DNA from: Pseudofrankia inefficax
GTDB taxonomy: Bacteria; Actinomycetota; Actinomycetes; Frankiales; Frankiaceae
NCBI RefSeq assembly: GCF_000166135.1
Contig: NC_014666.1
Coordinates: 620,001 to 684,000, forward strand
DNA: 64,000 bases
Direction: 5' to 3'
Part shown: one piece after another, positions 21,083 to 34,411 of the stretch
How the letters are laid out: every line of letters begins with the position of its first letter
Numbering within the stretch: the stretch's first letter is position 1
Notes under the pieces: model-generated
Told to the model about the DNA's origin: nothing
Database searches by the model: none
Seen by the model: the letters and a program-made list of their open reading frames with translations, nothing else
Made by a program: the position numbers and the translations under genes

Positions 21083-24000
21083 TCAGGACGGCGGGGTCGC
21101 CAGCGGTGCCTCCAGCGGGCGCCGGCGGATCCGCGGGAGGTAGGGCGTCAGCTCGTCCGGGTCGAACCGGCTCAGTCTGATCGACCACCAGACGGTCCTG
21201 ACGGAGTCGGCGTCACGGTCCTCTGAGGTCTTGTACGAACCGTCGGGGAACAGCGCCGTCCACCGGTTGCCGGCCAGCCCGAGCATCGTGGCGAGCTCCC
21301 GGCTTCCGTCACTCCGGTGACTGTCGCCGACCTGCCACAACCGGGCGGTGCCGTCGGCGCCGCCGGATACCAGCACGTCACCCGCCGCGTTGAACGCGAC
21401 CGACCGGATCTCCTCGGTATGCCCGGCCAGACGAGCCAGCTCGCTGCCGGTGCCCGGATCCCAGAGCCGGACGATGCCGTCCTCGCCGCCGGCCGCGAGC
21501 AGCCGGCCGTCCGGGGCGAAGGCGATGGTCCGTACCCGGCCGCCGTGGCCGACGAGGCGATTGCGCAGCACCCCGGTGGCGGCGTCCCAGATCCGCACCG
21601 TGCCCGACCCCGAGCCGCTCGCGAGCAGCTCGCTGTCGGGGGAGAACGCCACCGCGTTGACCCAGTCCGAGTGGCCGACGAGGCGGCGGGCCGCCGCAGC
21701 CGACCCGCCACGCGCCCCCACCGCGTCCCAGACGTGCACCGTACCGGTGTCGGTGCCGGCCGCGAGCCGCTCGCCGTCCGGTGAGAACGCGACCGTGAGC
21801 ACCCGAAGGCCGCCGGCCTTCAAGGTCGCCATCGGATGGCCGGTCCACGGGTTCCAGAGGCCCACGGTCCCGTCGGGATGACCGACCGCGAGGATCGTCG
21901 TGTCCGGGGAGAAGGCGAGCGCGCGCACGGGGGTCCGCCTGGTGTTCAGCCGGCGCACCGGCGTGTCCAGGTCGCTTCGGCCGTCGCCGGCCCGGCCGGG
22001 GGACAGCTCGTAGATCCGGACCAGGCCGTCACCGCCACCGGCGGCGAGCAGGGTGGCGTCGTCGGTCAGGCTCATCGCGTAGCACCAGGCCTTCTCGCCC
22101 GAGCCGATGTGCACCTGGGCGGCGGTCCTGGTGTCCCAGAGCCGCAGCGAGCCGTTCTCGCTGGCGGCGGCGACCAGCGACTGTTCGGGCACGAAGGCCG
22201 TGGCGAGCACGTCCGCGGTGCGGCCGGTGAGCAGCGTCCGTCCCGGCGGGGCGCCGTCGGTGACCTTCCAGACCTGGACGGTTCCGTCCCTGGTGCCCGC
22301 GATCAACGCCTTCCCCTCGGCGCCGACGAACTCCAGGATCGTCACCCAGCCGCGGGCCGCGCGCAGCGTCGTGCGCAGGCTGTCGCCGGCCAGGTCCCAC
22401 ACCCGGATCGTGCCGTCGTCGGCGCCGATCGCGACGAGCGAGCCACTCGGGTCGAACGCGAGGGCGCGGGCGAAATGATGGTCGCCGCGCCGGCGGCCCA
22501 CCTCACGCCCGGCGGCGAGGTTCCAGACCCGGGCCGTGTTCTCCCCGTTGACCCAGGCCAGCAGGGTTCCGTCTGGGGAGAAGCGCAGCGTGCGCGCCTG
22601 CTCGGTGGGCTTGCCGAGCACCGAGAGGTCGCTGCGGGTGCGCACGTCCCAGAGGCGTACCTCGTCGCCGTAGGCCAGCAGCGTCCCGTCCGGGGAGAAC
22701 TGCAGCGTCTTGATGCGGTCCGCCGACTTGTGCAGCGTCGCGACCCTGGTCAGCGTGGCCAGGTCCCAGACGTGCACCCTGCCCTCCCAGCAGCCGGTCG
22801 CCAGCAGCGAGCCGTCAGGGGAGAACGCGAGCGCGCGCACCCGGCTGGCGTGCCCGACGAAGCTCGCGACCTCCTCGGCCGCGGCGACGTCCCAGAGCTG
22901 GATGCCGCCGGCGACGTCGCCCGCCGCGAGCCGCGAGCCGTCGGCGGAGAACGCGACCGCGCGGATCCACTCGCCGCGCCCGCGCAGCACCGCCAGCACG
23001 TGCCCGTCGGCGAGGTCCTCCAGCGCGACGTGGTGCCCGGTTCCGTAGGCGAGCAGGTCGTGGGACGGCGAGAGCGCCTGGGTCCAGCGCAGGCCCGAGT
23101 CGATGACGACCTCCACGGGGTCGCGGCCCGGGACCGCGGCGGCGGCGAGCTCTGGGGCCGTCCGTGCCCGGTCCGGCGGGGTCGCGCCGAGCAGCGCGGC
23201 CCGTTCCCACTTGCTGCCGGTGAGGACGGTGCCGGTCAGGTCGGGGTCGGTGAGGCGGGCCCGGCGCAGGTCGGCGTCGGTGAGGTTCGCGCCGGTCAGC
23301 CGCAGGCGGCGGGCGCGGACTCCGGTCAGCCGCGCCCCCGTGAGGTTCGCGCCGGTCAGGTTCGCGTCGTCGAGGTCGGCGTCGGTGAGGTTCGCGCCGG
23401 CCAGGTCGGCGTCGCTGAGGTCGAGGCCGGTCAGGTCGGCGCCCTCCAGATGGGCCCCGCCGAGCCGCGCGCCGCGGGCCGCCGTCGGGTCGGCGCGGCG
23501 CGCGATCGCGAGCGCGTTCGCCCGGGGCGCCTGGCCGGCCTCCGGCTCGGCCAGAGCTCGCCGCGCCCAGGCTGTCGCCGCGGCGTCACCGGCCACGCCG
23601 CGCAGGAAGTCGACCATGAGCGGCGACATCACCCGCGCGCCCAGCACGTCGCCGCCACCGCCCAGGTCGTCGACGTCGGCGAGCCGCTGGGCGGCCGCCG
23701 CGGCGACCAGGTACTCCATCACCGACTGGTGGATGAAGGTGAAGCCGCCGTCGTCGGCGCGGACCAGCAGGCTGCCCGAGCCGACCATGTGCGCGGCCTG
23801 GCTGGAGTCGAGCTGGCCGGCGTCGACCCGGTCCGTCATCGCGTCGAGGGCCGTGCTGGTCGTCGCGGTGAGCTCTGAGAGGTTGATCACCTGGTCGGTC
23901 GTCCGCCAGAGCCGCAGCGCGAGCGCGGTGACGGCCTCCCGGCGCTCGCCGGCCGTCAGCGCCGGCCCGGCGCCGGGCGGGCGGGCCCGGCGTTCCTCGT

Positions 24001-27000
24001 AGCGCAGCCACTCCTCGATCAGCTCGCCGTACAGGTCCGCTGAGCTGATCACACCGGTTCTGGCCTGGACGGCACGCAGCCGGTTCGTGTCGAGCGACGC
24101 GATGAAGCCGAGCATCCGCGGGTTGTGGGACAGCCCGAGCAGGTCCCTGATGTCGTGGATCAGTTCGAGCCGCTCCCGAGCCCGCGCGGCGTCGCCGTGG
24201 TGCAGCCGGACGAGGAACTCCTCGATCTGGCGCTCGGTGAAGTCGCCGACCTCGGCGATCCGGCTGGCCGGCAGCAGCTCGACCCGGGCGCCGAGCGCCC
24301 CGCGGACCTGGCCGTGGGACAGGAAGTGCTGGGTCCGGCTGGTCACGACGACCTTGGCCTGGCCCTCGACGGCGTCCAGCAGCCGGCCCAGGTGCTCGGC
24401 AGCGGTCTCGTAGGTGACCCGCAGCGCGAGCTCGTCGAACCCGTCGAAGAGCAGCACCAGCCGGCCGCGGCGCAGCATGTACCGGAAGACCGACACGTCG
24501 ACCCGCTGCTCGCCGGAGGCGACCAGGTGGGCCGCGACCAGCTCGTCGACGCTGTGCGCCTTCTCCATCGCGCGCAGGTCGATCAGCAGCGGGATCAGGT
24601 GTGGGCGGCGTTCGGGCAGGGTGCGGGCCAGCTCGTGCAGGCAGAACGTCTTGCCGCGGCCGAAGTCGCCCAGGATCAGGACGAACCGCGCCGAGTCGGC
24701 GGTCAGCCAGTCGACCAGCTGGCCGAGCAGGTCACCGCCGTCGGGGCCGCTCGCCTGGTCGGTGCTGCCGTCGCCGGTTGGCACCATCCCGTTGAGCGTG
24801 CCGTCGAGCATGGTGTCGGCTGGGGTGGTGTCGGCCGGGGCGGCGTCGGTCGGGTCGGCGGTGACCGGGCCGCCGTCGATCACCCGGAACCGCTGCGGCA
24901 GGTAGAGCGCCGGCGGGTAGAGCCGGTCCGCGGCCAGCCGGTCGCTCTGCCGGCGCAGGTAGCCGCGCAGGTCCAGCAGGCCCTGGTACTCCACGAAGCT
25001 GCGCAGCCGCACACCGCGCACGGACGCCTGGCGGACCAGCTCGTCGGGCGCCGGCAGTGGGCCGCCGTAGACGAGGTCGGAGGTCAGCTGGGGGTCGGTC
25101 GCCGCGTACTGGCGGTGCACATGCTCGACGAACCGGTCCACGGCGCTCTCGTCGACGCCGTCCTCGGCGATCCCGACCGGGCGCTGCTCGAACACCGGCC
25201 CGTGTGGCACGGTCACCCTCAGGTACTCGGGGGCGACGCCGGTCGGCGAGATTCTGGTGATCGTCGCGCCGGGGGAGGAGAGCTCGGCGATCTCCGCGAC
25301 CCGGTCGGCGAACGTCTCGCCGCGCCGCGGGCCGGGCCCGTCCGCACTGTCCGGGTCGTCGGTGCGGTGCTCGCCGGTGGGCTTGCGCCCGTTGCTCGAG
25401 CGTGCGGCGGCCTTGCCGGCCGAGCCGGGGCCCTCGATGGCCGGTGGCCGGCGGGTTGGGCGGGGGAACGTGGTGGCGGCGTGCTCCCAGCGGGTCCGGT
25501 AGGTGACGGTCCCAGCGGCGCCGACCTCCTCGGCGGGCCGCCAGGCGCCGGCCCGGCGGGAGAAGCGCCGGTCCAGCCTGGTCACCTCCGCGCGGCTGAT
25601 CCGCAGGATCTGGTAGCGCAGCGCGGTGTCGGCGGTGGGCACCGGGTGCGGCGGGTGCGCGCTGATCAGCGTCGTCCCGGAGCGCGGCAGCCGGGTCGGC
25701 ACCGCCGGCAGCGGGCCGTCCGGCGTCGGCGCGCCGTGCCCGTGCGCGGCGAGCAGGAGGTTGACGTGCCCGCCGAGGATCAGGTCGACCCCGTAGGCGT
25801 CGGTCGCCTTCGCCGAGTGGACCCGGTCGGCGGCCAGCGGTGGGTGGTGGCCGACGGCGAGCCGGAACCAGCCGGCGCGCTCGTAGCCGGCGAGCCGGTC
25901 GGCGAACCAGCGGGCCTGGGCCTGGCCGACCTCGCCGCGGTCATCCGCCTGCAGGTGGCTCATCGCCATCGTGGAGTTCAGCCCGGCGACGACGAGCCGC
26001 AGGTCCGCCATCGGGTAGAGCGTCCACTCCTGCCCCACCGCGAAAGTCCGCTCACCGAGCTCCCGGTAGAGGTTCGCGTGGAAGTCGACGAAGTGCCGCC
26101 ACTTGCGCCAGTACGGTGCCGTCGGCTCGATCTCCTCGTCCTCGCAGGCGGCGAAGTAGGCGCGGGCGGCCGCGGCGCTCACGTCGCCCCGGCCCGGGAC
26201 CAGGGCGATCCGGTCGACCGGCAGGCCCAGCCGGTCGGCGAGCAGCGCCAGCCGCACCGCGGCCTGCTCGTACTCGCCACGCCGGCCCTCCAGGGCGACC
26301 CCGGTGACCACGACGAGGTCCGGGGTGAGACCGGGGCTGGCGGCGAGCACGGCCAGGTCGTCGAGCAGCGGGGCGCCGAACGGTTCCGGGCCGGTGTCCG
26401 GCGCGTGCCCGGGCCGCGTCGGCGCGGCGAGCGCGGGCAGGTGCAGCAGCGTGATCGACGTCCGCTCCCCGCCGCGGTCGGCCGCGGCGAGCGTGGCATC
26501 GGCTCGTGGCTCCGGCAGGGCCGGCACCGACGCGGTGAAGCCGGGCGTCGACGCGGTGAATCCGGGCGTCGGCGTGGTGGGGCCGAGAGCCGGCATGGTG
26601 GGGCCGAGTGCCTCAGGCGGCCCGGCCATCAGGGCGGGTAGCGCGGCCGCGCCGGCCGGCAGCGCGAGCCGCTGGGCCGGCCCGGCGATCTCGTAGCCCG
26701 GGAAGGGCGGCTCGTGCTCCGGCTCGGGCCGGCCGGTCGCCGGCTCGACCAGCCCGCGCAGCACGGTCTGCACCGCCTTCGCGCGGTCCAGGCCGAGCAG
26801 CACGATCATGTTGATCGTGCCGAGCAGTGGCGGCAGGTCGCACTGCTCGACCAGCACCGGCAGCAGGAAGCCGTCGCGGGTGTGCGCCAGCCGCATGCCC
26901 GCCTGCCATTCCTCCCGCACCCAGGAGGACCGGTCGAGGTAGGCCGGCGAGACGACCGCGATCATCCGGTCGGCCCGGGTGAGCGCGGCGTCTATCTGGT

Positions 27001-27166
27001 CGACGAAGTTGGCGCCGAGCGGGAACGAGCGCCGGTAGAAGTCGACCTCGTAGCCGGCGTCGCGCAGCACATGATCCAGCCAGCTGCCCCAGCGCTCGTC
27101 CGGCCCCGCCACGCTGAGAAAGATCCGCCGCACCTCACCCGCGGTCGGAGCAGACTCTCCCCACAC
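21083..27166 (-). CDS. TIR / inactive metallophosphoesterase / NACHT / pentapeptide / 14xWD40 protein
   Basis: A 2027-residue STAND-type protein (GTG 27166). TIR domain at about 12-150, with YLDRSSWVREEW placing the NADase Glu at about Glu86. At about 235-545 is a calcineurin-like phosphoesterase fold whose metal sites are lost: HLPALAA in place of HLSDLH, TGVALEG in place of TGDL, VPGRGD in place of VPGNHD; GHHPP and GGHVN remain. After a linker comes a NACHT NTPase (Walker A GDFGRGKT about 830-838, Walker B LVLLFDGFDEL, VVVTSRT). Pentapeptide repeats span about 1229-1326, then 14 WD40 repeats (about 1350-1960), enough for two seven-blade propellers. This layout suits a sensor that oligomerises and activates TIR NAD cleavage. 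It is the last gene of a three-gene minus-strand set. Confidence 0.9.
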   Translation of the reverse strand: MWGESAPTAGEVRRIFLSVAGPDERWGSWLDHVLRDAGYEVDFYRRSFPLGANFVDQIDAALTRADRMIAVVSPAYLDRSSWVREEWQAGMRLAHTRDGFLLPVLVEQCDLPPLLGTINMIVLLGLDRAKAVQTVLRGLVEPATGRPEPEHEPPFPGYEIAGPAQRLALPAGAAALPALMAGPPEALGPTMPALGPTTPTPGFTASTPGFTASVPALPEPRADATLAAADRGGERTSITLLHLPALAAPTRPGHAPDTGPEPFGAPLLDDLAVLAASPGLTPDLVVVTGVALEGRRGEYEQAAVRLALLADRLGLPVDRIALVPGRGDVSAAAARAYFAACEDEEIEPTAPYWRKWRHFVDFHANLYRELGERTFAVGQEWTLYPMADLRLVVAGLNSTMAMSHLQADDRGEVGQAQARWFADRLAGYERAGWFRLAVGHHPPLAADRVHSAKATDAYGVDLILGGHVNLLLAAHGHGAPTPDGPLPAVPTRLPRSGTTLISAHPPHPVPTADTALRYQILRISRAEVTRLDRRFSRRAGAWRPAEEVGAAGTVTYRTRWEHAATTFPRPTRRPPAIEGPGSAGKAAARSSNGRKPTGEHRTDDPDSADGPGPRRGETFADRVAEIAELSSPGATITRISPTGVAPEYLRVTVPHGPVFEQRPVGIAEDGVDESAVDRFVEHVHRQYAATDPQLTSDLVYGGPLPAPDELVRQASVRGVRLRSFVEYQGLLDLRGYLRRQSDRLAADRLYPPALYLPQRFRVIDGGPVTADPTDAAPADTTPADTMLDGTLNGMVPTGDGSTDQASGPDGGDLLGQLVDWLTADSARFVLILGDFGRGKTFCLHELARTLPERRPHLIPLLIDLRAMEKAHSVDELVAAHLVASGEQRVDVSVFRYMLRRGRLVLLFDGFDELALRVTYETAAEHLGRLLDAVEGQAKVVVTSRTQHFLSHGQVRGALGARVELLPASRIAEVGDFTERQIEEFLVRLHHGDAARARERLELIHDIRDLLGLSHNPRMLGFIASLDTNRLRAVQARTGVISSADLYGELIEEWLRYEERRARPPGAGPALTAGERREAVTALALRLWRTTDQVINLSELTATTSTALDAMTDRVDAGQLDSSQAAHMVGSGSLLVRADDGGFTFIHQSVMEYLVAAAAAQRLADVDDLGGGGDVLGARVMSPLMVDFLRGVAGDAAATAWARRALAEPEAGQAPRANALAIARRADPTAARGARLGGAHLEGADLTGLDLSDADLAGANLTDADLDDANLTGANLTGARLTGVRARRLRLTGANLTDADLRRARLTDPDLTGTVLTGSKWERAALLGATPPDRARTAPELAAAAVPGRDPVEVVIDSGLRWTQALSPSHDLLAYGTGHHVALEDLADGHVLAVLRGRGEWIRAVAFSADGSRLAAGDVAGGIQLWDVAAAEEVASFVGHASRVRALAFSPDGSLLATGCWEGRVHVWDLATLTRVATLHKSADRIKTLQFSPDGTLLAYGDEVRLWDVRTRSDLSVLGKPTEQARTLRFSPDGTLLAWVNGENTARVWNLAAGREVGRRRGDHHFARALAFDPSGSLVAIGADDGTIRVWDLAGDSLRTTLRAARGWVTILEFVGAEGKALIAGTRDGTVQVWKVTDGAPPGRTLLTGRTADVLATAFVPEQSLVAAASENGSLRLWDTRTAAQVHIGSGEKAWCYAMSLTDDATLLAAGGGDGLVRIYELSPGRAGDGRSDLDTPVRRLNTRRTPVRALAFSPDTTILAVGHPDGTVGLWNPWTGHPMATLKAGGLRVLTVAFSPDGERLAAGTDTGTVHVWDAVGARGGSAAAARRLVGHSDWVNAVAFSPDSELLASGSGSGTVRIWDAATGVLRNRLVGHGGRVRTIAFAPDGRLLAAGGEDGIVRLWDPGTGSELARLAGHTEEIRSVAFNAAGDVLVSGGADGTARLWQVGDSHRSDGSRELATMLGLAGNRWTALFPDGSYKTSEDRDADSVRTVWWSIRLSRFDPDELTPYLPRIRRRPLEAPLATPPS

Positions 27167-27257
27167 GCCCCGATAGTCCCAGAATCACGCAACCCACAAG
27201 GGAAATCGGCAAATGCGTGTCCCAAGAGCCGCGACACCGCCGGCTCCAGCGCTCCGA

Positions 27258-28211
27258 TCAGGAGCCGGCATCGGGTTGCTGGTCCCACCACGGCGGGTCG
27301 GGTATCGAGGCGGAAGGGATGTCGGCTGCCGGTGGCTCAGGCCAGGCGGGCCGAGTCGGTGCGTCCTTGTCCGCCTCGCCCGGATCGGCCTGGGCCGGCT
27401 CGGGGTCGAACAGGTGATCGTCTCCTGCCACCAGCTCGGCGCGGGGCCGGAAGCCGTCTACGGGGGCACCGCGCTGGGCGCCCTCATCTGCTCGGTCCAG
27501 GAAGGCGGCTCCCCGATCGCGTCGGACGCCACGTTCGGTCTCCCGCTGGGCGGCGTCGTAATCGAGGTCGTCGACCCGCTGCTCGTTCCGGCGGAGGCGC
27601 CTGAGCCGGTCGACATCGATCTGGGCGCGGCCCTGTTCGAGCTCGCCCTGCAGCTCCTCGAAGCCCGCCGGCGGATGAACGATGACGTTGTCGATCCAGA
27701 CGACCAGCCCGCTGCCGATCGTGAAGCCGACACCGCGCTTGGCATCGATCAGGTCCTGCACCAGCCGGGCCGAGCCCGGCTCGATCGAGCGCGTGATATC
27801 GGAAAGGATCGACCGCGTGATCCGGTCGCAGTGCCCGACGGGGGCGAGCGGGGCTCGCAGGAATTCTATGGGCGAATATATGCACCACCGGGCGGCGACC
27901 ACCAGGCGGAACCGTGAAGTGTTGGCGGAGCTCGCCGATTCGGTTTCGATGTTCAGCCCGTAGGTCTGATTGTCGACGAAGTAGTAATTACGCCAAATAA
28001 CCTTGTCCAGCTTCTCGCCTGGCGGTAGCTCCAGAAAGTTCCCCCGGTTGTCGGCGTATACGACGCGCCAGCCCAGCCGGGGCGCAGGCAGGCCGAAGAA
28101 GGGGACCGTGTAGCGCGGGCTGACCGGTGAGGCCGGCGCGTTCCAGCCTGGATGATACTGCCAGCCGGTCTGACCGCCGTTCCAGCCACGGGGGTAGTTG
28201 TTATAGACCAC
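27258..28211 (-). CDS. SPFH/band-7-like protein of a conflict locus
   Basis: A 317-residue protein starting at GTG 28211 (SD GGAG, 7 nt), overlapping the end of the upstream NTPase gene by 11 bp, so translation is probably coupled. The N-terminus is aromatic and Gly/Asn-rich (VVYNNYPRGWNGGQTGWQY). The middle (about 45-225) has the strand-helix pattern of SPFH domains: FRLVVAARWCIYSPIEF, a helix with DRITRSILSDITRSI, then GSGLVVWIDNVIVHPP followed by a Glu/Gln-rich helix, corresponding to the G-V-x-V-x-x-V-x-I-x-x-x-x-P signature. A charged coiled-coil and a Pro/Asp-rich tail follow. I have not recognised a named family. Membrane scaffolding or a structural partner is inference. Confidence 0.6.
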   Translation of the reverse strand: MVYNNYPRGWNGGQTGWQYHPGWNAPASPVSPRYTVPFFGLPAPRLGWRVVYADNRGNFLELPPGEKLDKVIWRNYYFVDNQTYGLNIETESASSANTSRFRLVVAARWCIYSPIEFLRAPLAPVGHCDRITRSILSDITRSIEPGSARLVQDLIDAKRGVGFTIGSGLVVWIDNVIVHPPAGFEELQGELEQGRAQIDVDRLRRLRRNEQRVDDLDYDAAQRETERGVRRDRGAAFLDRADEGAQRGAPVDGFRPRAELVAGDDHLFDPEPAQADPGEADKDAPTRPAWPEPPAADIPSASIPDPPWWDQQPDAGS

Positions 28212-30741
28212 CGCTGTCTCCGTTCGTGGACCTCTCGATCGTTGCGAGGACGACCTGACACGTGCGTGGCCAGCGTTTCTCCCAGCGGCGGAACTCTCGT
28301 TGGAGTCGGTCGAAATCGGCACGGCTGCGCAGCGACTCCCAGACAAGATGCGCGAATGTCGTCCGGGCGAGGTCGTCGTCCGCCTCGGTGTCCGCGGTCC
28401 ACTGCCGCAGGCAGTCGAGGGCCAGCTGGTTAGTGGCCGGCTCGTCGAGCGCCCGCCGCCACAGCTCAGCGATCCGACGCAGCGTGAGCCGGTCTCCGCG
28501 GCCGGGCATGCACAGCGTGAGCAGCGCCGGGCTGCCTTGGCCAGGACTGTCGACTCCAAGGCGGAGATGAAGTGCGAGTCGCAGAAAGGCGAGGATGCCG
28601 GCGAACCGCTGGGTCGGCCCGCTGCCGGGCTCGGTCCACACCCCGAGCCGACGCAGCACCGCGTCGGTGGCGCCGCCCGGTCGCGTCGGCCGGTCGGTCT
28701 CACCGTGCACGGCGATCAGCGGAGCGGAGAAAATCTCGAAGACACTCAGAGAGACGTTGTCGATCACGTTGAGATCGACGTCCTCGGGATTCTCATCTTC
28801 CTCTGCGTCTTCCAGCGGAGCCATCAGATACGCCAGCTGATCGAGCGCGACGTCTGGGTCAAACGGCCCCAGACTCGTTCCCCAGACCCGGATCGCCGCC
28901 AGGCGTCTTGCGGGGTGCTGGGTGTGCATCTTCCAGTCGCGGAGCATCTCGATGACCACCGGCGCCAGCCCGGGGCGCCAGTCCAGCGCCAGGCTCAGCG
29001 CGGCGGCGACGGCGCCCCGCTGCCAGGGCAGGTCGTCGTCCGCCCACGGCAGGAGCACCCGCAGCAGGATCTCGTCGAAGGACCAGCTGGCCAGCACGCC
29101 GACCGCGGCGGCGGCGTGCGCCCGGACCGCTGGGTCGGTGTCCTCGCCCAGCGCCGCCAGCCACCTGAGTAGGACGGAGTGCAGCGCGTCCTGCTCCGTC
29201 CAGAGCCAGAACAGAATCCGCGACGGGTAGTTGGCACAGGTGAAGGCCACGACCTCGGTCTCGGTTGAGCCATATCGGGTGGTCTCTGTGCCGACTCTTA
29301 CCTCGGCGGACGCCGCCGCGAGCCGACCCGACCGCGGCCGGGTGAACAGCGGCTGGCTGGCGTACGGGTCGGATCGCTCGTGCGGAGCGGGGTCGAATCC
29401 CCAGGTCTCGAGAGGGGCGGGACGCAGGAAACGACGGGAGGCGATCAGCATTCGGTCTTCGAGATCGCGCGCAAGGCGAGTGACCTTCGCGTAGGGCATT
29501 CCATCGAAGACGGCAAGGGCGATTACAAACGCGCGATGTTCCGGGTCCTGCCCAGGCGCCGCCAGCCAGTCCGCGAAGCGGGCCTCGATGAAGTCTGTGA
29601 CCCATTGCCGCAGCGTGTCGGTTGCCTTCTGCGAGCCTCGCTCGGAACCCTGTTCGGCCCAGATCCGTCCGAGCTGGGCGAGCCCGGCAGCGCTGTAGCC
29701 CTCGCCGACCAGCTGGTCTACGAGCCCGCTCAGCTCCGTGCTCTCTCGCGCCTCGTCGAGTACGTCCGGATACGGCCGGCCGAGGCGCCGCGCGGCATGC
29801 CGGGCGACCACCCGGATGGCTGGTGGCGGCTCGTCCGCGTCGATGAGAAACTCGTCGAGCTCGTCGCCGAAGACTGTACCCGCGTCGACCGTGACCACCA
29901 GGTAGTCGCGGTTCGCGCGAAGCACGTTCGCCAGCCGTTCGAGGTCGCTGCCGCGGAGCAGGCCGGCGCCGTGCGGCGTCGCGACATCAAGAAGAAGGCC
30001 CCCCGGCTGCGGATTCTCCTCGTCGCCGGCTGGCCGGAGATGGTCTGAAGTCAGTCCACGCAGGTCGGTGCTGGCATTGAGCCGGCTAATACGGACCTGG
30101 GCGACTGCTGCTGGGTGAAGGTCCAGGCCGCGCGGGACGGGCGACGGGGGATGGCCCGACGAGGTCGTGAGGCACTCGTACAGCAAATACTCCGCAGTGG
30201 CGGTGCGCCCCCAGCCAGGGGCGGCACGCAGGACCACCAGATGATTGTCCGCCAGCTTCTTGTACAGCTGTCCGTGACAGGGCGCGGCAACGAACGCCCC
30301 GACGACCCGGGCCAACTCGGGCTGGCTGATGATTCCAGGGACTCCACCGGAGCCGGCGCCCGCCGCGCCCGCCGTTCCCGTGAACTGGCTCCCGAAGTTG
30401 AGGTTGCCACCGGAAACCTTGAAGACGACCCGCGCCGCGTGCAGCGCCGCGCCGAACATCGCGGCAGACTCGGCGCTTTCCCGATCGTTGACCTTGTCTC
30501 GGGCCTGTCCCCACGGGTCGGGTCCGCCGTCGGGCTGCGCGCCGCGCTGGTGACCACCAGCCGGCCCACCTTCCGGTCCGGGTGCCGGGTCGCCCCCACC
30601 CGCGGGGCCTCCTGGCGGACGACCATCGCCACCTACGGGACGTCCCGCACCGGGCCGCGCGCCGCCGGGACCCCGTAGGTTGTCACCCGCCGCGGGTCGC
30701 GCTGGACCGCCGCCAGCCGCCTCGCGGTCCGCCGGGGTCAC
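28201..30741 (-). CDS. P-loop (Lys to Arg) NTPase-like protein with helical repeats
   Basis: About 846 residues if GTG 30741 is used. The start is uncertain: ATG 30876 lies in AT-rich, non-coding-looking sequence, and ATG 30459 is also possible. Gly/Pro-rich residues 1-90 lead to the motif FKVSGGNLNFG (107-117). A nucleotide-binding-like domain follows with APGWGRT at about 170-177, where the Walker A Lys is Arg, and a hydrophobic strand ending in Asp (GGLLLDVA). The C-terminal 400 residues are Leu/Ala/Trp-rich helical pairs, like HEAT-type repeats. It is first in the minus-strand set and divergent from the EAD1-TIR gene that carries the same motif. It looks like an NLR-like receptor without a catalytic P-loop lysine. 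Confidence 0.65.
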   Translation of the reverse strand: MTPADREAAGGGPARPAAGDNLRGPGGARPGAGRPVGGDGRPPGGPAGGGDPAPGPEGGPAGGHQRGAQPDGGPDPWGQARDKVNDRESAESAAMFGAALHAARVVFKVSGGNLNFGSQFTGTAGAAGAGSGGVPGIISQPELARVVGAFVAAPCHGQLYKKLADNHLVVLRAAPGWGRTATAEYLLYECLTTSSGHPPSPVPRGLDLHPAAVAQVRISRLNASTDLRGLTSDHLRPAGDEENPQPGGLLLDVATPHGAGLLRGSDLERLANVLRANRDYLVVTVDAGTVFGDELDEFLIDADEPPPAIRVVARHAARRLGRPYPDVLDEARESTELSGLVDQLVGEGYSAAGLAQLGRIWAEQGSERGSQKATDTLRQWVTDFIEARFADWLAAPGQDPEHRAFVIALAVFDGMPYAKVTRLARDLEDRMLIASRRFLRPAPLETWGFDPAPHERSDPYASQPLFTRPRSGRLAAASAEVRVGTETTRYGSTETEVVAFTCANYPSRILFWLWTEQDALHSVLLRWLAALGEDTDPAVRAHAAAAVGVLASWSFDEILLRVLLPWADDDLPWQRGAVAAALSLALDWRPGLAPVVIEMLRDWKMHTQHPARRLAAIRVWGTSLGPFDPDVALDQLAYLMAPLEDAEEDENPEDVDLNVIDNVSLSVFEIFSAPLIAVHGETDRPTRPGGATDAVLRRLGVWTEPGSGPTQRFAGILAFLRLALHLRLGVDSPGQGSPALLTLCMPGRGDRLTLRRIAELWRRALDEPATNQLALDCLRQWTADTEADDDLARTTFAHLVWESLRSRADFDRLQREFRRWEKRWPRTCQVVLATIERSTNGDSGGL

Positions 30742-30940
30742 CGGCGTCCAGACCCGGACGAGGGCCCAGCGGCGCAGGCGGAGTGGTGACGGACTGGCAC
30801 GCTTTCGACGCCGTGAGTCATACGCACCCCCGTGTTTTTTACGCTGCGGCGCAATGTCAGGATATCGTCCCCGCATCCGAGCGTGACGACTGTGTGGCAG
30901 TCAGTCGGAGCCGGGTTGTCCGGCGAGAGGGACGAGAGCG
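30742..30940. promoter_or_regulatory. divergent promoter region of the conflict island
   Basis: Lower G+C than the surroundings, including a run of six or more T at about 30834-30841. It separates the minus-strand NTPase set from the plus-strand EAD1-TIR gene, so both sides of the system probably share regulation here. No operator was recognised. Confidence 0.35.
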
Positions 30941-31912
30941 GTGACGCAGCAGCTGTCTGATCTGGAGCTGAGAACGCTCGCCGAGGTCTACTTCGATCGA
31001 TGGGCCGGGGGGGAGCTCCTCAAGCGGGCCGGCCTTTCACCTGCTGACCAGCCACAGGGTGCCGGGATCGTGCTGGATTTCTGGCGCCAGGTGAACGCCT
31101 CGCTCGGCGCCGGCATCCTGGCGGACGGCCGGCGCCGGATCCTCGCCGCCGCGGCGGCCGACTACCCGGCCAATGAGGTCTTCCGGCGTGGGCTCTCGGA
31201 CGCAGCGACGTCGGGCCGGCCGGGTGGCGATCCGGCTACCCCGGTGTCGCGCGGCGACCTCGCGTCAGAGCCGGACGAGGCCGGCGGCGCCGGCGCAACG
31301 CTGCGTGCGGCGCGGATGGAGTTCAAGGTCTCCGGCGGCAACGTCAACTTCGGCCATCAGGGCAGGGTTGTCGGATCCAGCGCGCCGGTCTCGTCCCGTG
31401 AGGGCCTAGACGCACGGGCACGGTCGCAGCGGCATCCAGACAGTGGCTCTCCTGACCGGACCGCGCCGGATGTCCTGGTGCTGGCCGACGCGGAGGACGA
31501 GAGCTGGGGCCAGTGGGTTGCCTGGCACCTGCACGCCGACGGTTACCGAGTGGAACTCGACGACTGGTCCCAGTACCTCGCTGATCAGGCCGGTCTCCTT
31601 CTGGCCGACGCGGTCCGCGCGACAAGCCTGACCATTCTCGTGCGCGGCCATGGGGATCCCGTCTGGTCTGCCTCCTATTTCCAGCTCGCCGGTTTTCAGG
31701 AGCTCGCGGTGAAAAAGCGAGGAAGAATCGTCGGCGTGCGCGTCAGCGCCCACGCCGCTGACGTCGTTCCCATGGATGGAGTGACCTTTGTCGATCTAGT
31801 CGGGCTGGGTGAGAACGAGTCCGCGGCACGGTTGACGGCGGCGGTTCGTCGCCTGCTCACCGGTTGGGAGCCGACGGCCGTGAAACCGGCCTTCCCTGGT
31901 GATGGGCCCTAA
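30941..31912 (+). CDS. EAD1-TIR protein with shared FKVSGGNVNFG motif
   Basis: A 323-residue protein (GTG 30941). Residues about 4-85 match effector-associated domain 1: LRTLAEVYFDRWAGGELLKR, then LDFWRQVNASLGAGIL and ILAAAAADYPANEVF. After a disordered linker comes AARMEFKVSGGNVNFG (motif at 128-138), then a TIR domain (about 177-315; DVLVLADAEDESWGQWVAW, GYRVELDDW, SLTILVRG). At the position of the NADase Glu the sequence reads WSASYFQLAG, with no Glu, so the TIR may be catalytically dead or use another residue. EAD1 domains are known adaptor modules of actinobacterial conflict systems. It is divergent from the NTPase bearing the same motif. Confidence 0.78.
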   Translation: MTQQLSDLELRTLAEVYFDRWAGGELLKRAGLSPADQPQGAGIVLDFWRQVNASLGAGILADGRRRILAAAAADYPANEVFRRGLSDAATSGRPGGDPATPVSRGDLASEPDEAGGAGATLRAARMEFKVSGGNVNFGHQGRVVGSSAPVSSREGLDARARSQRHPDSGSPDRTAPDVLVLADAEDESWGQWVAWHLHADGYRVELDDWSQYLADQAGLLLADAVRATSLTILVRGHGDPVWSASYFQLAGFQELAVKKRGRIVGVRVSAHAADVVPMDGVTFVDLVGLGENESAARLTAAVRRLLTGWEPTAVKPAFPGDGP

Positions 31913-32077
31913 GGAACACCTCGGTGCCTCCGGCTGATGCTTGGTCGATAGGTGTGTCCCGTCGTGGTTGTGAATGCTCGGTGAAGGCCGCCATGCGAGG
32001 ACCGAGTACGTGATCAGATCGATGATCACCGCCGCCGGGCGCGCTCAGGCAATAAGAGAGCGGGCAGAATCCCAGGG

Positions 32078-34411
32078 TCACGAGGCTGTAGAAGAAGATT
32101 TTTCCGTTAGCCCCAGGTCGGGCTCGGCGCTGGGCCTGGGGACGGCGACCGTTTCCGGAGCCGTTGGGCCCGCGGCCGGGCCGCCTTCGCTCAGGCCGAT
32201 CCGGTTGTGCAGCCGGCGCAGCGGGGCGGGCGCCCACCAGTTGACGTCACCGGCGACCCGCATGAACGCGGGAACCAGAACGCCACGCACCAGGCTCGCG
32301 TCCAGGACGATGGCCAGCGCCGTCGCCAGGCCGAACATCTGCATGAACCGGACCGAGCCGGTCGCGAACGCCGCGAAGGTCACGGCGAGCAGCAGGGCGG
32401 CGGTGGTGACGATCCGGCCGGTGCGGGCGAGGCCCGCGGCGACGGCCTCGGCGTTCGGGGTGCCGGCGTCGTGCTCCTCCTTGATCCGGGAGAGCAGGAA
32501 GACCTCGTAGTCCATCGACAGGCCGAAGGCGATGCAGAACAGCAGCACCGGCATCGAGGTGTCCAGCGGTCCCGGGGTGAAGCCGAACAGGCCGGAGAGG
32601 TGCCCGTCCTGGAAGATCCAGACCGAGACGCCCAGGACGGCGCCGAGTACCAGGCCGTTGAGTACCAGCGCCTTCAGCGGGAGCACGACGCTGCCGGTGA
32701 ACAGGAACAGCAGCACGAACGTCGCCAGCGCGATCAGCCCGATGGCCAGCGGGAGGCGCGAGCCGATCGCGTGCTTACCGTCGACGAGACCGGCCGAGAC
32801 TCCGCCGACCAGGACCTGGGTGCCGGGTGGCGCGGGCAGCGCGCGGGCGGCGTGGGCCATCCGCTCGCCGCTCGCCGACATCGGGTCGATCGAGGGGACG
32901 ACCTGCAGGTAGGTCGCGCCGTCGGCCGCGAACCTGGCGTCCGCTGGGCCGGGCGGACTCGTGCGCGCTCCGTGCTGGAAGGCGCCCGCGGCGCTGTCGA
33001 CGCGGCCGACGCCGGGCAGCCGGGACAGTGCTGCGGCGTAGCTCGTGAGGGTCGCCTCGCTGGTCGGGCCGTTGACGACGATGTTCATCGCCCCGCTGAC
33101 GTTGGACCCGAAGTCCGCGCGCAGCACGTCGCCGACCTGCCGGCTCGGCGCGGCGTTGAGCACGCGGTCGTCCGGGGTGGCGAAGGAGACGTGCAGCACC
33201 GGCGCGGCGAGCAGGAGCAGCAGCGCGACCACCGGCAGGCCGGCGAGCAGCGGCCGGCGCATCACCCTCGTCGCGACGCCCCGCCAGAACGGCGACTCCG
33301 TGGCCTCACGCGGGACGTCGCTGGCCGCGCCCCGCTCGGCGGTGCGCTGGCGGCGGACCAGGCCGATCAGCCCCCTGACCGGCAGCGCGTTGACCCTCTC
33401 GCCAAGCAGCAGCAGCACCGCCGGCAGCACCAGCACCGCGGTCAGCATCGTGACCAGGGTGACGGCGATGCCGGCGTAGGCCATGGACTTCAGGAAGTAC
33501 GGCGGGAAGACGAGCATCACGGCTAGCGCGACGATGACGGTCGCGCCGCTGAACAGGATGGTCCGGCCCGCGGTGCGCACGGTCGCGATCACGGCCGCCC
33601 GCTTCTGGATGCCGGTGAGGGGCTCCGCGGAACCGCGCCGCACGGCGGCGAGCTCCTCGCGGTAGCGACTGACCATCAGCAGGGCGTAGTCGATGCCGAG
33701 GCCCAGGCCCATCGCGGTGGCCAGGTTGACGGCGAAGATCGAGACATCCGTCAGGGAGCCGATCACCGACAGCGCTGCGAAACCGCCGAGGATGCCGATG
33801 AGCCCGACGCCCAGCGGCAGCGCCGCAGCGACCACGCCCGCGAACGCGACGACCAGCAGCACCAGCGTGATCGGGATCGCGATGGACTCGGCGGTGCTGA
33901 GGTCCTTGGTCACCTGGGCGTTGACGTCCCGGTTGACGCCGGCTCGCCCGCCCGGTCGCACGGTGACCGGGCCGTCGTCGGCGGCCTTCTCGATCTTCGT
34001 GGCGACGGCCTTGGCGTGGTCGTCGTCCACCGACGCGACGACGAGCGCCTCACGCCCGTTGGTGGAGCGCAGCGCGGCCCCGGCTCCGGTCCAGTACGAG
34101 ACGACGCCCCGCACACCGGGCTCCTTGCCGAGCTCGGCCGCCAGTGAACGCCCGGCGGCGGCCACGGCCGGGTCGTCGACGCTGCCCGAGCGGGCGGTGA
34201 CGAGCAGGACGAGGTTGGGAGTGCCGCCGAAGCGGGTGTCCACCTCGTTCGCCGCGCGGGTCGAGTCGGACTTCGGGTCGTCGAAGCCGTTGGACAGCAG
34301 CTTGCCGAACGCGCCGACACCGAGCACCGCGGCGCCGAGGACGAACAGCAGGGCGACGGTCAGGACGATCCGGGGCCGGCCGGTCACACCCCGGGCAAGA
34401 CGAGCGAACAC
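32078..34411 (-). CDS. MMPL-family exporter under TetR control
   Basis: A 777-residue MMPL transporter. GTG 34411 is chosen for its AGGAGG SD 6 nt away; the longer open frame upstream runs through the promoter. The fold is duplicated: TM1, soluble domain, five to six helices with GLGIDYALLMVSRYREEL, then a second half with GLSMDYEVFLLSRIKEEH. The C-terminal 40 residues are soluble. A TetR gene lies divergently 108 bp away and two GAACANTGTTC-like sites flank the promoter, one overlapping the start codon. The substrate is probably a hydrophobic or lipid-like compound, by family. Confidence 0.93.
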   Translation of the reverse strand: MFARLARGVTGRPRIVLTVALLFVLGAAVLGVGAFGKLLSNGFDDPKSDSTRAANEVDTRFGGTPNLVLLVTARSGSVDDPAVAAAGRSLAAELGKEPGVRGVVSYWTGAGAALRSTNGREALVVASVDDDHAKAVATKIEKAADDGPVTVRPGGRAGVNRDVNAQVTKDLSTAESIAIPITLVLLVVAFAGVVAAALPLGVGLIGILGGFAALSVIGSLTDVSIFAVNLATAMGLGLGIDYALLMVSRYREELAAVRRGSAEPLTGIQKRAAVIATVRTAGRTILFSGATVIVALAVMLVFPPYFLKSMAYAGIAVTLVTMLTAVLVLPAVLLLLGERVNALPVRGLIGLVRRQRTAERGAASDVPREATESPFWRGVATRVMRRPLLAGLPVVALLLLLAAPVLHVSFATPDDRVLNAAPSRQVGDVLRADFGSNVSGAMNIVVNGPTSEATLTSYAAALSRLPGVGRVDSAAGAFQHGARTSPPGPADARFAADGATYLQVVPSIDPMSASGERMAHAARALPAPPGTQVLVGGVSAGLVDGKHAIGSRLPLAIGLIALATFVLLFLFTGSVVLPLKALVLNGLVLGAVLGVSVWIFQDGHLSGLFGFTPGPLDTSMPVLLFCIAFGLSMDYEVFLLSRIKEEHDAGTPNAEAVAAGLARTGRIVTTAALLLAVTFAAFATGSVRFMQMFGLATALAIVLDASLVRGVLVPAFMRVAGDVNWWAPAPLRRLHNRIGLSEGGPAAGPTAPETVAVPRPSAEPDLGLTEKSSSTAS

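What the first reader, a model, noticed from the sequence alone, without database searches (positions are those of the whole stretch)
21083..31912. Four-gene conflict-type island with two TIR proteins, an NLR-like pair and an SPFH-like protein
Seen: three minus-strand genes (P-loop/helical-repeat, SPFH-like, TIR-NACHT-WD40), the first two overlapping by 11 bp, and one divergent EAD1-TIR gene across a 200-bp AT-richer promoter region. Known: EAD1, NACHT, TIR and WD40 modules are typical of NTP-dependent conflict systems of multicellular bacteria. Inference: the genes form one inducible defence or self-killing system with two receptor types and a membrane-associated component. I know of no named system with this combination.
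Basis: partly seen in the sequence, partly recalled or inferred. Interest (0 to 1): 0.88.

Follow-up and report, generated by a model that had tools for sequence, protein, structure and literature searches.

The report
Bacterial receptor with matched sticky tags
Three neighbouring genes in this bacterium look like a small alarm circuit in which a receptor and its partner carry the same short, probably self-sticking tag, and related circuits in other actinobacteria mostly use their own matching pair of tags.

Summary
The four genes are there, but they are not one system. P0002 (SPFH fold), P0003 (STAND-like/HEAT) and P0004 (EAD1–TIR) fill a 4.9-kb, lower-GC insert (27220–32116) missing from two sister genomes. 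The TIR–NACHT–WD40 gene P0001 is an older neighbour. P0003 and P0004 share a 23-residue motif (17/23 identical), FKVSGGNxNFGxQ. Related actinobacterial loci have the same layout: an SPFH-like gene usually follows the receptor, and a cyclase-like, BTAD, TIR or EAD1 partner lies beside it. In most loci the partner's motif matches the receptor's N-terminal motif of the same locus better than those of other loci (67 loci, permutation z 25.5; 53 Streptomyces-type pairs, partial Mantel r 0.62, 0 of 2000 permutations as high). The motifs resemble published amyloid-signalling motifs. Best reading: SPFH-scaffolded receptors with mostly altered P-loops signal through locus-specific, probably amyloid-like templating; here the output is an EAD1 adaptor whose TIR lacks the catalytic Glu. 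It works like a BASS signalosome but differs in receptor class, SPFH component and outputs. Amyloid formation and defence function are inferred, not shown.

The parts
27220..32116 (.). Inserted cassette carrying P0002, P0003 and P0004 (and the last bases of the MMPL gene); absent between P0001 and MMPL in sister genomes G002 and G001
   Evidence: Alignment to G002: homology ends at window 27219 (213/220 identical) and resumes at 32117 (357/378), with 109 bp between in G002; in G001 it ends at 27219 and resumes at 32118. GC 68.9% against 72.9% for the window; GC3 0.78-0.81 against 0.90-0.95 for three flanking genes.
27258..28211 (-). P0002, SPFH-fold protein (317 aa), no strongly hydrophobic stretch
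   Evidence: AlphaFold model pLDDT 67.9; the 14 PDB fold matches with E<=0.001 are all SPFH proteins (HflK/C, prohibitin, stomatin, QmcA), erlin and flotillin follow; TM-scores are low, 0.27-0.33 of the query. A homologue directly 3' of the receptor in 43 of 67 loci by HMM.
28201..30876 (-). P0003, STAND-like P-loop/HEAT receptor (891 aa by the longest ORF; start uncertain)
   Evidence: nSTAND3 and HEAT_2 below cut-off; model of residues 140-891 pLDDT 80.2; Foldseek SAMD9 1.5e-6, AVAST5 filament 1.9e-3, HEAT/ARM proteins, low TM-scores.
30202..30225 (-). P-loop of P0003, Lys replaced by Arg (GWGRT, R224)
   Evidence: HMM column: R in 45 of 67 loci, K in 15 of 67, other in 7.
30385..30453 (-). 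Motif in P0003 (residues 142-164, GAALHAARVVFKVSGGNLNFGSQ)
   Evidence: BLASTP 17/23 identical to P0004 118-140, E 7e-7 for the pair.
30941..31912 (+). P0004, EAD1 - motif - TIR protein (323 aa), divergent
   Evidence: Pfam.
30950..31192 (+). EAD1 domain of P0004
   Evidence: Pfam EAD1 E 2.3e-12; one of 25 EAD1 matches in this genome and the only one inside the window.
31292..31360 (+). Motif in P0004 (residues 118-140, GATLRAARMEFKVSGGNVNFGHQ)
   Evidence: with full-length P0004, best-ranked of 67 partners for the P0003 N-terminus.
31490..31825 (+). TIR domain of P0004, without a Glu at the catalytic position
   Evidence: TIR_2 28.4 bits, cut-off 28; aligned to WVREEWQ of P0001 the stretch reads WSASYFQ.
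21083..27166 (-). P0001, TIR - phosphoesterase-like - NA-iREase3 - NACHT - pentapeptide - WD40; neighbour, NOT part of the module

Best explanation
Shown: a three-gene cassette (P0002-P0004) lies in one insert, and the receptor P0003 and the divergent partner P0004 carry the same short motif. In related loci the motif differs from locus to locus but, in most, matches between receptor and partner. Inferred: P0003 senses a cue through its HEAT superhelix, with an altered P-loop acting as a conformational rather than a canonical ATPase switch. The SPFH protein P0002 gathers receptors into an oligomer. Clustered N-terminal motifs then adopt a beta-arch/cross-beta (amyloid-like) form that templates the matching motif in P0004. 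P0004 is an adaptor: the motif is its input, and EAD1 is its output, clustering other EAD1 proteins of this genome (25 EAD1 matches in all). Its TIR lacks the catalytic Glu and may bind other TIR domains. In relatives the same receptor design would drive nucleotidyl-cyclase-like proteins beside Crp-type regulators, BTAD regulators, or TIR proteins. P0001 is a separate neighbour.
For: Motif pair. 67 loci: mean cognate score 55.3 against 30.0 non-cognate, z 25.5, top rank in 28 of 67, within the top three in 50 of 67; letter-shuffled control 27.7. With partners chosen by rule alone: z 23.9, top rank 26 of 67. The pairing holds within the cyclase class (43 loci) and the TIR class (8 loci), 0 of 5000 permutations each. 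Streptomyces-type orthologues: partial Mantel 0.621 controlling for both protein bodies, 0 of 2000; z 14.7 for cognate scores, top rank in 18 of 53; body-body control z -1.2. G014: a 153-aa EAD1+motif protein without TIR, NFTVNGGNVIFGGRQ against NFTVSGGNVIFGGRQ in its receptor. SPFH fold. Empty site in two sister genomes. Published motifs of the same look: BASS3 GVQVGDGNVQINRF and the pattern GxGDQNxVS; Streptomyces-type motifs here read GGDQHGVSGG and SGDQNNVTGNQ; this likeness is by eye. The motif region of P0003 has pLDDT under 50 in the monomer model.
Against: No amyloid test or ASM predictor was run. Motif sharing fits any homotypic peptide contact. In P0004 the motif is central, not C-terminal. 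In the window pair 14 of 18 tested identical residues also use the same codon (7.6 expected), so recent DNA copying contributes here; over 47 loci it is 334 of 553 against 278.9 expected. Controls are not perfectly flat: partner body against receptor N-terminus gives z 3.1. Both BTAD subgroups are weaker (83 and 30 of 5000 permutations reach the observed value). Some loci rank poorly (L093, L097, L098, L103, L108, L112, L117, L119, L129, L130 at rank 20 or worse of 66 others; by eye L108 and L112 still look alike). Fold matches of both models have low TM-scores. No phage, expression or toxicity data.
Confidence: 0.6

Rival explanations
1. The matched motifs are ordinary homotypic docking peptides (a beta-strand pair or small beta-solenoid clamp) that hold receptor and effector together, without amyloid templating.
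For: The statistics show pairing, not polymerisation; motifs vary widely in length and sequence.
Against: Motif look and placement (receptor N-terminus, partner C-terminus in most loci, adjacent genes) follow the published amyloid-signalling pattern.
Confidence: 0.27
2. The similarity is mainly DNA-level copying (gene conversion or motif duplication) between neighbouring genes, with little functional pairing.
For: Window pair: 14 of 18 tested residues codon-identical against 7.6 expected, the only one of 47 loci with an excess above 4.
Against: Over 47 loci the codon identity of identical residues is 60% (334/553) against about 50% expected, and in G014 9 of 19 against 10.4, so protein-level conservation dominates; by eye the motif keeps its place ahead of the receptor's P-loop and near the partner's C-terminus in most loci.
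Confidence: 0.07
3. All four genes form one defence island and P0001 is a second receptor that uses the same adaptor through TIR-TIR contacts.
For: Same strand and 91-bp spacing between P0002 and P0001; both P0001 and P0004 have TIR domains.
Against: P0001 and its upstream 53 bp stand without the cassette in G002 and G001; its iREase/NACHT part has no match in the stretches of 69 other loci.
Confidence: 0.06

Closest known systems
Bacterial amyloid signalling (BASS) NLR signalosomes (Dyrka et al. 2020, not held; seen through passages and sections of PMC7889193, PMC8086366, PMC12261475)
   Same: Short motif shared by a receptor N-terminus and the effector of the adjacent gene in multicellular bacteria; TIR effectors are on record; a central motif is thought possible for RHIM types.
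   Different: Receptor is a STAND-like/HEAT protein with Arg in the P-loop instead of a recognised NACHT/NB-ARC NLR; an SPFH gene is added; outputs are cyclase-like, BTAD, EAD1. No BELL domain is named among the Pfam matches of 67 partners, though I do not know whether Pfam holds one.
EAD-coupled conflict systems (Kaur et al. 2020, PMC7159879, passages)
   Different: No EAD1 was found in the receptor P0003; coupling to it would be by the motif, with EAD1 on the output side. The passages of that paper found with SPFH, HEAT, PP2C and cyclase concern vWA/VMAP, GAP1 and two-gene caspase systems, not this triad.
AVAST type 5 / nSTAND3 STAND ATPases and SAMD9
   Same: nSTAND3-like P-loop module followed by a helical-repeat superhelix; both appear among the fold matches of P0003 (SAMD9 1.5e-6, AVAST5 1.9e-3).
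   Different: Avs5 has a fused Sir2 effector and needs its Walker A Lys (passages of PMC12931631); P0003 has Arg there and its effector is a separate protein.
SPFH (stomatin/prohibitin/flotillin/HflKC) scaffolds
   Same: Fold of P0002.
   Different: No Pfam match and no strongly hydrophobic stretch in P0002; placed behind a STAND-like receptor. The operon partner discussed for prokaryotic SPFH proteins in PMC2636767 (passages) is NfeD.

Membership tests
BASS amyloid signalosome | Same short motif in receptor N-terminus and adjacent effector | tested here: met
   (in the window the effector-side motif is central rather than C-terminal).
BASS amyloid signalosome | Receptor is an NLR with NACHT or NB-ARC | tested here: not met
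   P0003: only weak nSTAND3, HEAT and one chance family at E<=1; R224 in the P-loop. A homologue, L020, has a sub-cut-off NACHT match at E 0.12.
BASS amyloid signalosome | Motif belongs to one of BASS1-10 | not testable with these tools
   BASS profiles are not held; resemblance to BASS3/RHIM and GDQN is by eye.
BASS amyloid signalosome | Cross-beta self-assembly and cross-seeding | not testable with these tools
   Needs peptide work.
EAD-coupled conflict system | EAD1 on the effector protein | tested here: met
   Pfam 2.3e-12 in P0004; also in the G014 partner.
EAD-coupled conflict system | Second EAD1 on the core component of the same operon | tested here: not met
   P0004's is the only one of 25 genome-wide EAD1 matches that lies inside the window; none in P0002 or P0003 at E<=1.
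TIR NADase effector | Catalytic Glu | tested here: not met
   P0004 WSASYFQ against P0001 WVREEWQ and L020 FSAAEWQ; which Glu is catalytic is recalled, not from a call.
SPFH superfamily | SPFH beta domain followed by a long helix | tested here: met
   (fold level; low TM-scores, model pLDDT 67.9).
SPFH superfamily | Membrane anchor | tested here: not met
   Maximum 19-residue hydropathy of P0002 1.58. SPFH-like proteins of TIR-type loci L099, L101, L103 begin with hydrophobic hairpins (by eye).
AVAST/Avs5-type STAND | Walker A Lys | tested here: not met
   R224 in P0003; K in 15 of 67 receptors.
Class III nucleotidyl cyclase (partners in other loci) | Metal-binding Asp pair and cyclase fold | tested here: inconclusive
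   D13, G56, D57 and R126 invariant or nearly so in 20 sequences; PDB profile hits to cyclases only at E 0.055 and above; no Pfam cyclase family among the matches of 67 partners at E<=0.01.

The most novel reading that the evidence does not exclude
Actinobacteria hold a large, undescribed class of prion-like signalosomes: SPFH-scaffolded pseudo-STAND receptors whose locus-specific amyloid motifs act as private lock-and-key tags, wiring each receptor to one exchangeable output (a cyclase with a Crp-type regulator, a BTAD transcription factor, a TIR protein, or an EAD1 adaptor that opens the genome's whole EAD1 effector pool). Insulation between parallel pathways would be achieved by motif divergence.
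Probability: 0.45. Interest if true: 0.92.

Novelty: new variant of a known kind. Interest (0 to 1): 0.8.

Why it matters
Amyloid signalling in bacteria is known mainly from NLR/BELL pairs, and the outcome of the signalling is described as unexplored (PMC7889193). Here two partly overlapping sets of receptor-partner loci (67 and 53; at least two loci are in both) show co-varying motifs and tie the motif to recognisable outputs, including cyclase-like proteins beside Crp regulators and BTAD transcription factors. This suggests that such tags can control signalling and gene expression as well as cell death, and it makes motif specificity and insulation directly testable with natural cognate and non-cognate pairs. 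It would also link the amyloid-motif and EAD worlds through a single adaptor protein.

Tried and rejected
Four-gene unit: rejected. In G005 and G004 the window homology also ends at 27214/27219 beside P0001, but MMPL is not matched next to it in the stretches fetched, and G003 holds only a diverged relative; so the P0001-MMPL adjacency rests on G002 and G001. Plasmid collection with P0003: no match. PADLOC: no match for P0002-P0004; only two weak OloA matches in 41 receptor homologues. First genome-contig scan with A4: 147 pattern stretches, no relative. A first, cruder pairing test, with all neighbours within 5 kb, put only 15 of 67 loci at top rank and did not list the window at rank 2 or better; some of its alignments were low-complexity noise. 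It was replaced by rule-chosen partners, where the window ranks 49 with the partner's last 60 aa and 0 with the full partner, because its motif is central. In one search I corrected the partner of L019 by hand after seeing and used full-length partners for the two EAD1 loci. Sequence search of the PDB with the SPFH profile found nothing meaningful, so the fold rests. A first Walker-A regex was unusable and was replaced by HMM columns. A first MAFFT TIR alignment misaligned rows, and two of its own-genome pieces were in a wrong frame; it was replaced by pairwise alignments. No terminator- or promoter-like sites 26900-32100; no tRNA in the window; no 8-mer repeat shared by the two insert ends. 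Rows dropped: 3 of 70 loci (L027, L126, L137) lack the receptor N-terminus; 14 of 67 loci lack a recognised cyclase (13) or motif anchor (1) and were left out; 10 of 56 match rows and the G007 row were not fetched. One of the two DNA patterns lies at the end of the receptor motif, so receptor motifs of that set are partly selected; their partners are not.
Full report
What is there. The window is G000:C1:620001-684000 of an unnamed 8.82-Mb single-contig genome. The four reported ORFs exist as described: P0001 21083-27166 (-), P0002 27258-28211 (-), P0003 28201-30876 (-), P0004 30941-31912 (+). P0002 and P0003 overlap by 11 bp. P0003 and P0004 are divergent across 64 bp by the longest-ORF starts, which are 68.8% GC against 68.9% for the insert. 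The start of P0003 is uncertain.

Only three genes belong together. The part of P0001 with the iREase-like and NACHT domains is 98, 93, 87 and 85% identical in G002, G001, G005 and G004. Of these, G001, G002 and G005 had no match to the P0003 profile at E<=1e-6. Aligned to G002, window homology stops at 27219 and resumes at 32117, and G002 holds 109 bp between; G001 stops at 27219 and resumes at 32118. In G005 and G004 the homology also ends there, but MMPL is not next to P0001 in the stretches fetched. The insert 27220-32116 carries P0002, P0003 and P0004 whole, with GC 68.9% against 72.9% for the window and GC3 of 0.78-0.81 against 0.90-0.95 in three flanking genes. The P0001 NACHT piece had no match in the stretches of 69 other loci of the P0003 family.

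The shared motif. P0003 142-164 and P0004 118-140 are 17/23 identical. Of the 41 places that P0004 matches in its own genome, the P0003 motif is the only one centred on this segment; three longer, weak matches run across it and three more touch its edge.

Receptor family. P0003 (residues 140-891) matched 10 of 146 related genomes at 1e-5, the own one included. A profile of six homologues matched 13 of 35 genomes of the same family (1e-6), 20 of 197 drawn from the class (1e-15), and 49 of 200 of a second family (1e-25). I fetched the surroundings of 69 matches outside the window. P0003's model (41-sequence alignment, mean pLDDT 80.2) has three PDB matches with E<=0.001: SAMD9 (1.5e-6), an engineered repeat protein and transportin; AVAST5 filament (1.9e-3) and many AAA+ and HEAT/ARM proteins follow. 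TM-scores are low (0.13-0.23 of the query in the rows shown), so this supports a STAND-plus-superhelix layout, not close kinship. The P-loop Lys is Arg in 45 of 67 loci, including the window, and Lys in 15 of 67.

SPFH gene. P0002 has no Pfam match, but its model's 14 PDB matches with E<=0.001 are all SPFH proteins, with low TM-scores of 0.27-0.33 of the query. By HMM, an SPFH-like gene follows the receptor directly in 43 of 67 loci, and a hit is present in 66 of the 67 loci. Six of the 24 loci without an HMM hit were read by eye and look like divergent SPFH proteins, three of them with an N-terminal hydrophobic hairpin; the other 18 were not read.

Partners. A rule that ignores the motif picked a gene 5' of the receptor in 67 of 67 loci (3 divergent); the pick for L019 was later found wrong. 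In-house profiles class 43 as cyclase-like, 8 as TIR, 13 as BTAD-type regulators, and leave 3 (the window, L019, L119). Pfam finds BTAD in 13, TIR_2 in 9 and EAD1 in 2 of 67, with L019's partner corrected. The cyclase-like family has near-invariant D13, GD57 and R126 but only weak PDB matches to cyclases. A gene with cNMP-binding and Crp-type HTH domains lies 5' of the cyclase-like gene in the three examples scanned, and a regex for such a gene hits in the upstream part of 57 of 67 loci. Some loci add a PP2C gene (Pfam in L020 and L022) and a kinase-like gene (by eye only; no Pfam match in L020 or L021).

Pairing test. With rule-chosen partners and their last 60 residues, cognate scores average 53.4 against 29.7, z 23.9, 26 of 67 at top rank; the window itself ranks 49 in that form and first with the full partner. 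With L019 corrected and full-length partners for the two EAD1 loci: 55.3 against 30.0, z 25.5, 28 at top rank, 50 within the top three, 55 within the top six of 67; the window ranks first. Letter-shuffled N-termini give 27.7. Within classes: cyclase z 17.5, TIR 4.5, the two BTAD groups 2.8 each. A control against partner bodies gives z 3.1, small but not zero. A second, named set of 67 loci, 65 of them titled Streptomyces, gave 53 usable pairs: 114.3 against 89.7, z 14.7, 18 at top rank, 34 within the top three, partial Mantel r 0.621 after both protein bodies are controlled, 0 of 2000 permutations as high, body-body control z -1.2. Rare variants match too: QNNVTGNQ in both proteins of L161, GHHGISGG in both of L188. 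Codon identity at identical residues is 334 of 553 against 278.9 expected in 47 loci, so the match is mostly at protein level; the window pair (14 of 18 against 7.6) looks recently copied or converted.

The closest relative explains P0004. In G014 the receptor (47% identical) and its SPFH gene are followed by a convergent 153-aa protein made of EAD1 and the motif, NFTVNGGNVIFGGRQ against NFTVSGGNVIFGGRQ in its receptor; Pfam finds EAD1 only. This suggests that the TIR is dispensable. P0004's TIR has no Glu where P0001 and L020 have one. P0004 is best read as a motif-to-EAD1 adaptor. This genome has 25 EAD1 matches, and published work proposes EAD1 as a homotypic coupler of effectors (passages of PMC7159879).

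Mechanism and its standing. Shown: one cassette, matched motifs, co-variation, SPFH fold at model level, altered P-loop. Inferred: sensing by P0003, scaffolding by P0002, amyloid-like templating, EAD1 recruitment, a conflict role. [quoted passage not shown] BASS3 peptide GVQVGDGNVQINRF (section of PMC8086366); GDQN pattern NxxxGxQYxxxGxGDQNxVSxxxxQxN (section of PMC12261475).

Novelty. Ten searches of the held PMC library showed, in their listings and in the passages and sections I opened, no description of a STAND-like/HEAT receptor with an SPFH gene and motif-matched cyclase, BTAD, TIR or EAD1 partners. The library lacks most subscription papers, including the original BASS paper. I file it as a new variant of the amyloid-signalosome kind, not as a member of BASS, because the receptor criterion was not met.

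Noticed in passing
window 21083-27166: P0001 combines TIR, a phosphoesterase-like stretch that by eye has lost metal-ligand motifs, NA-iREase3, NACHT, pentapeptide and WD40 repeats; its iREase/NACHT part is 85-98% identical in four genus members.
   Followed up: partly
window 32078-32116: The insert boundary lies inside the 3' end of the MMPL gene, so its last residues differ from those of two sister genomes.
   Followed up: partly
L020, L021, L022: Longer versions with a PP2C phosphatase gene (L020 and L022 by Pfam, L021 by eye) and a kinase-like gene with a C-terminal hydrophobic stretch (by eye) behind receptor and SPFH gene.
   Followed up: partly
L096, L099, L100, L101, L102, L103: TIR-type loci: the TIR protein ends in a long G/N-rich tail; in L099, L101 and L103 an SPFH-like protein with an N-terminal hydrophobic hairpin follows the receptor, and L102 has a gene with a similar start.
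   Followed up: partly
L147-L213: The motif of many of these loci (GGDQHGVSGG, SGDQNNVTGNQ) resembles by eye the fungal GDQN amyloid motif reported in PMC12261475.
   Followed up: no
L025, L111, L112, L114, L118, L120, L122, L123, L124, L128, L133, L135, L138: BTAD-type transcription factors (13 loci by in-house profiles) as partners of a separate receptor gene, most with a similar C-terminal motif: a possible motif-controlled transcription switch.
   Followed up: partly
L092: Its receptor has no BLASTP match at 1e-10 to the other 66 receptors although the profile finds it; a very divergent member.
   Followed up: no
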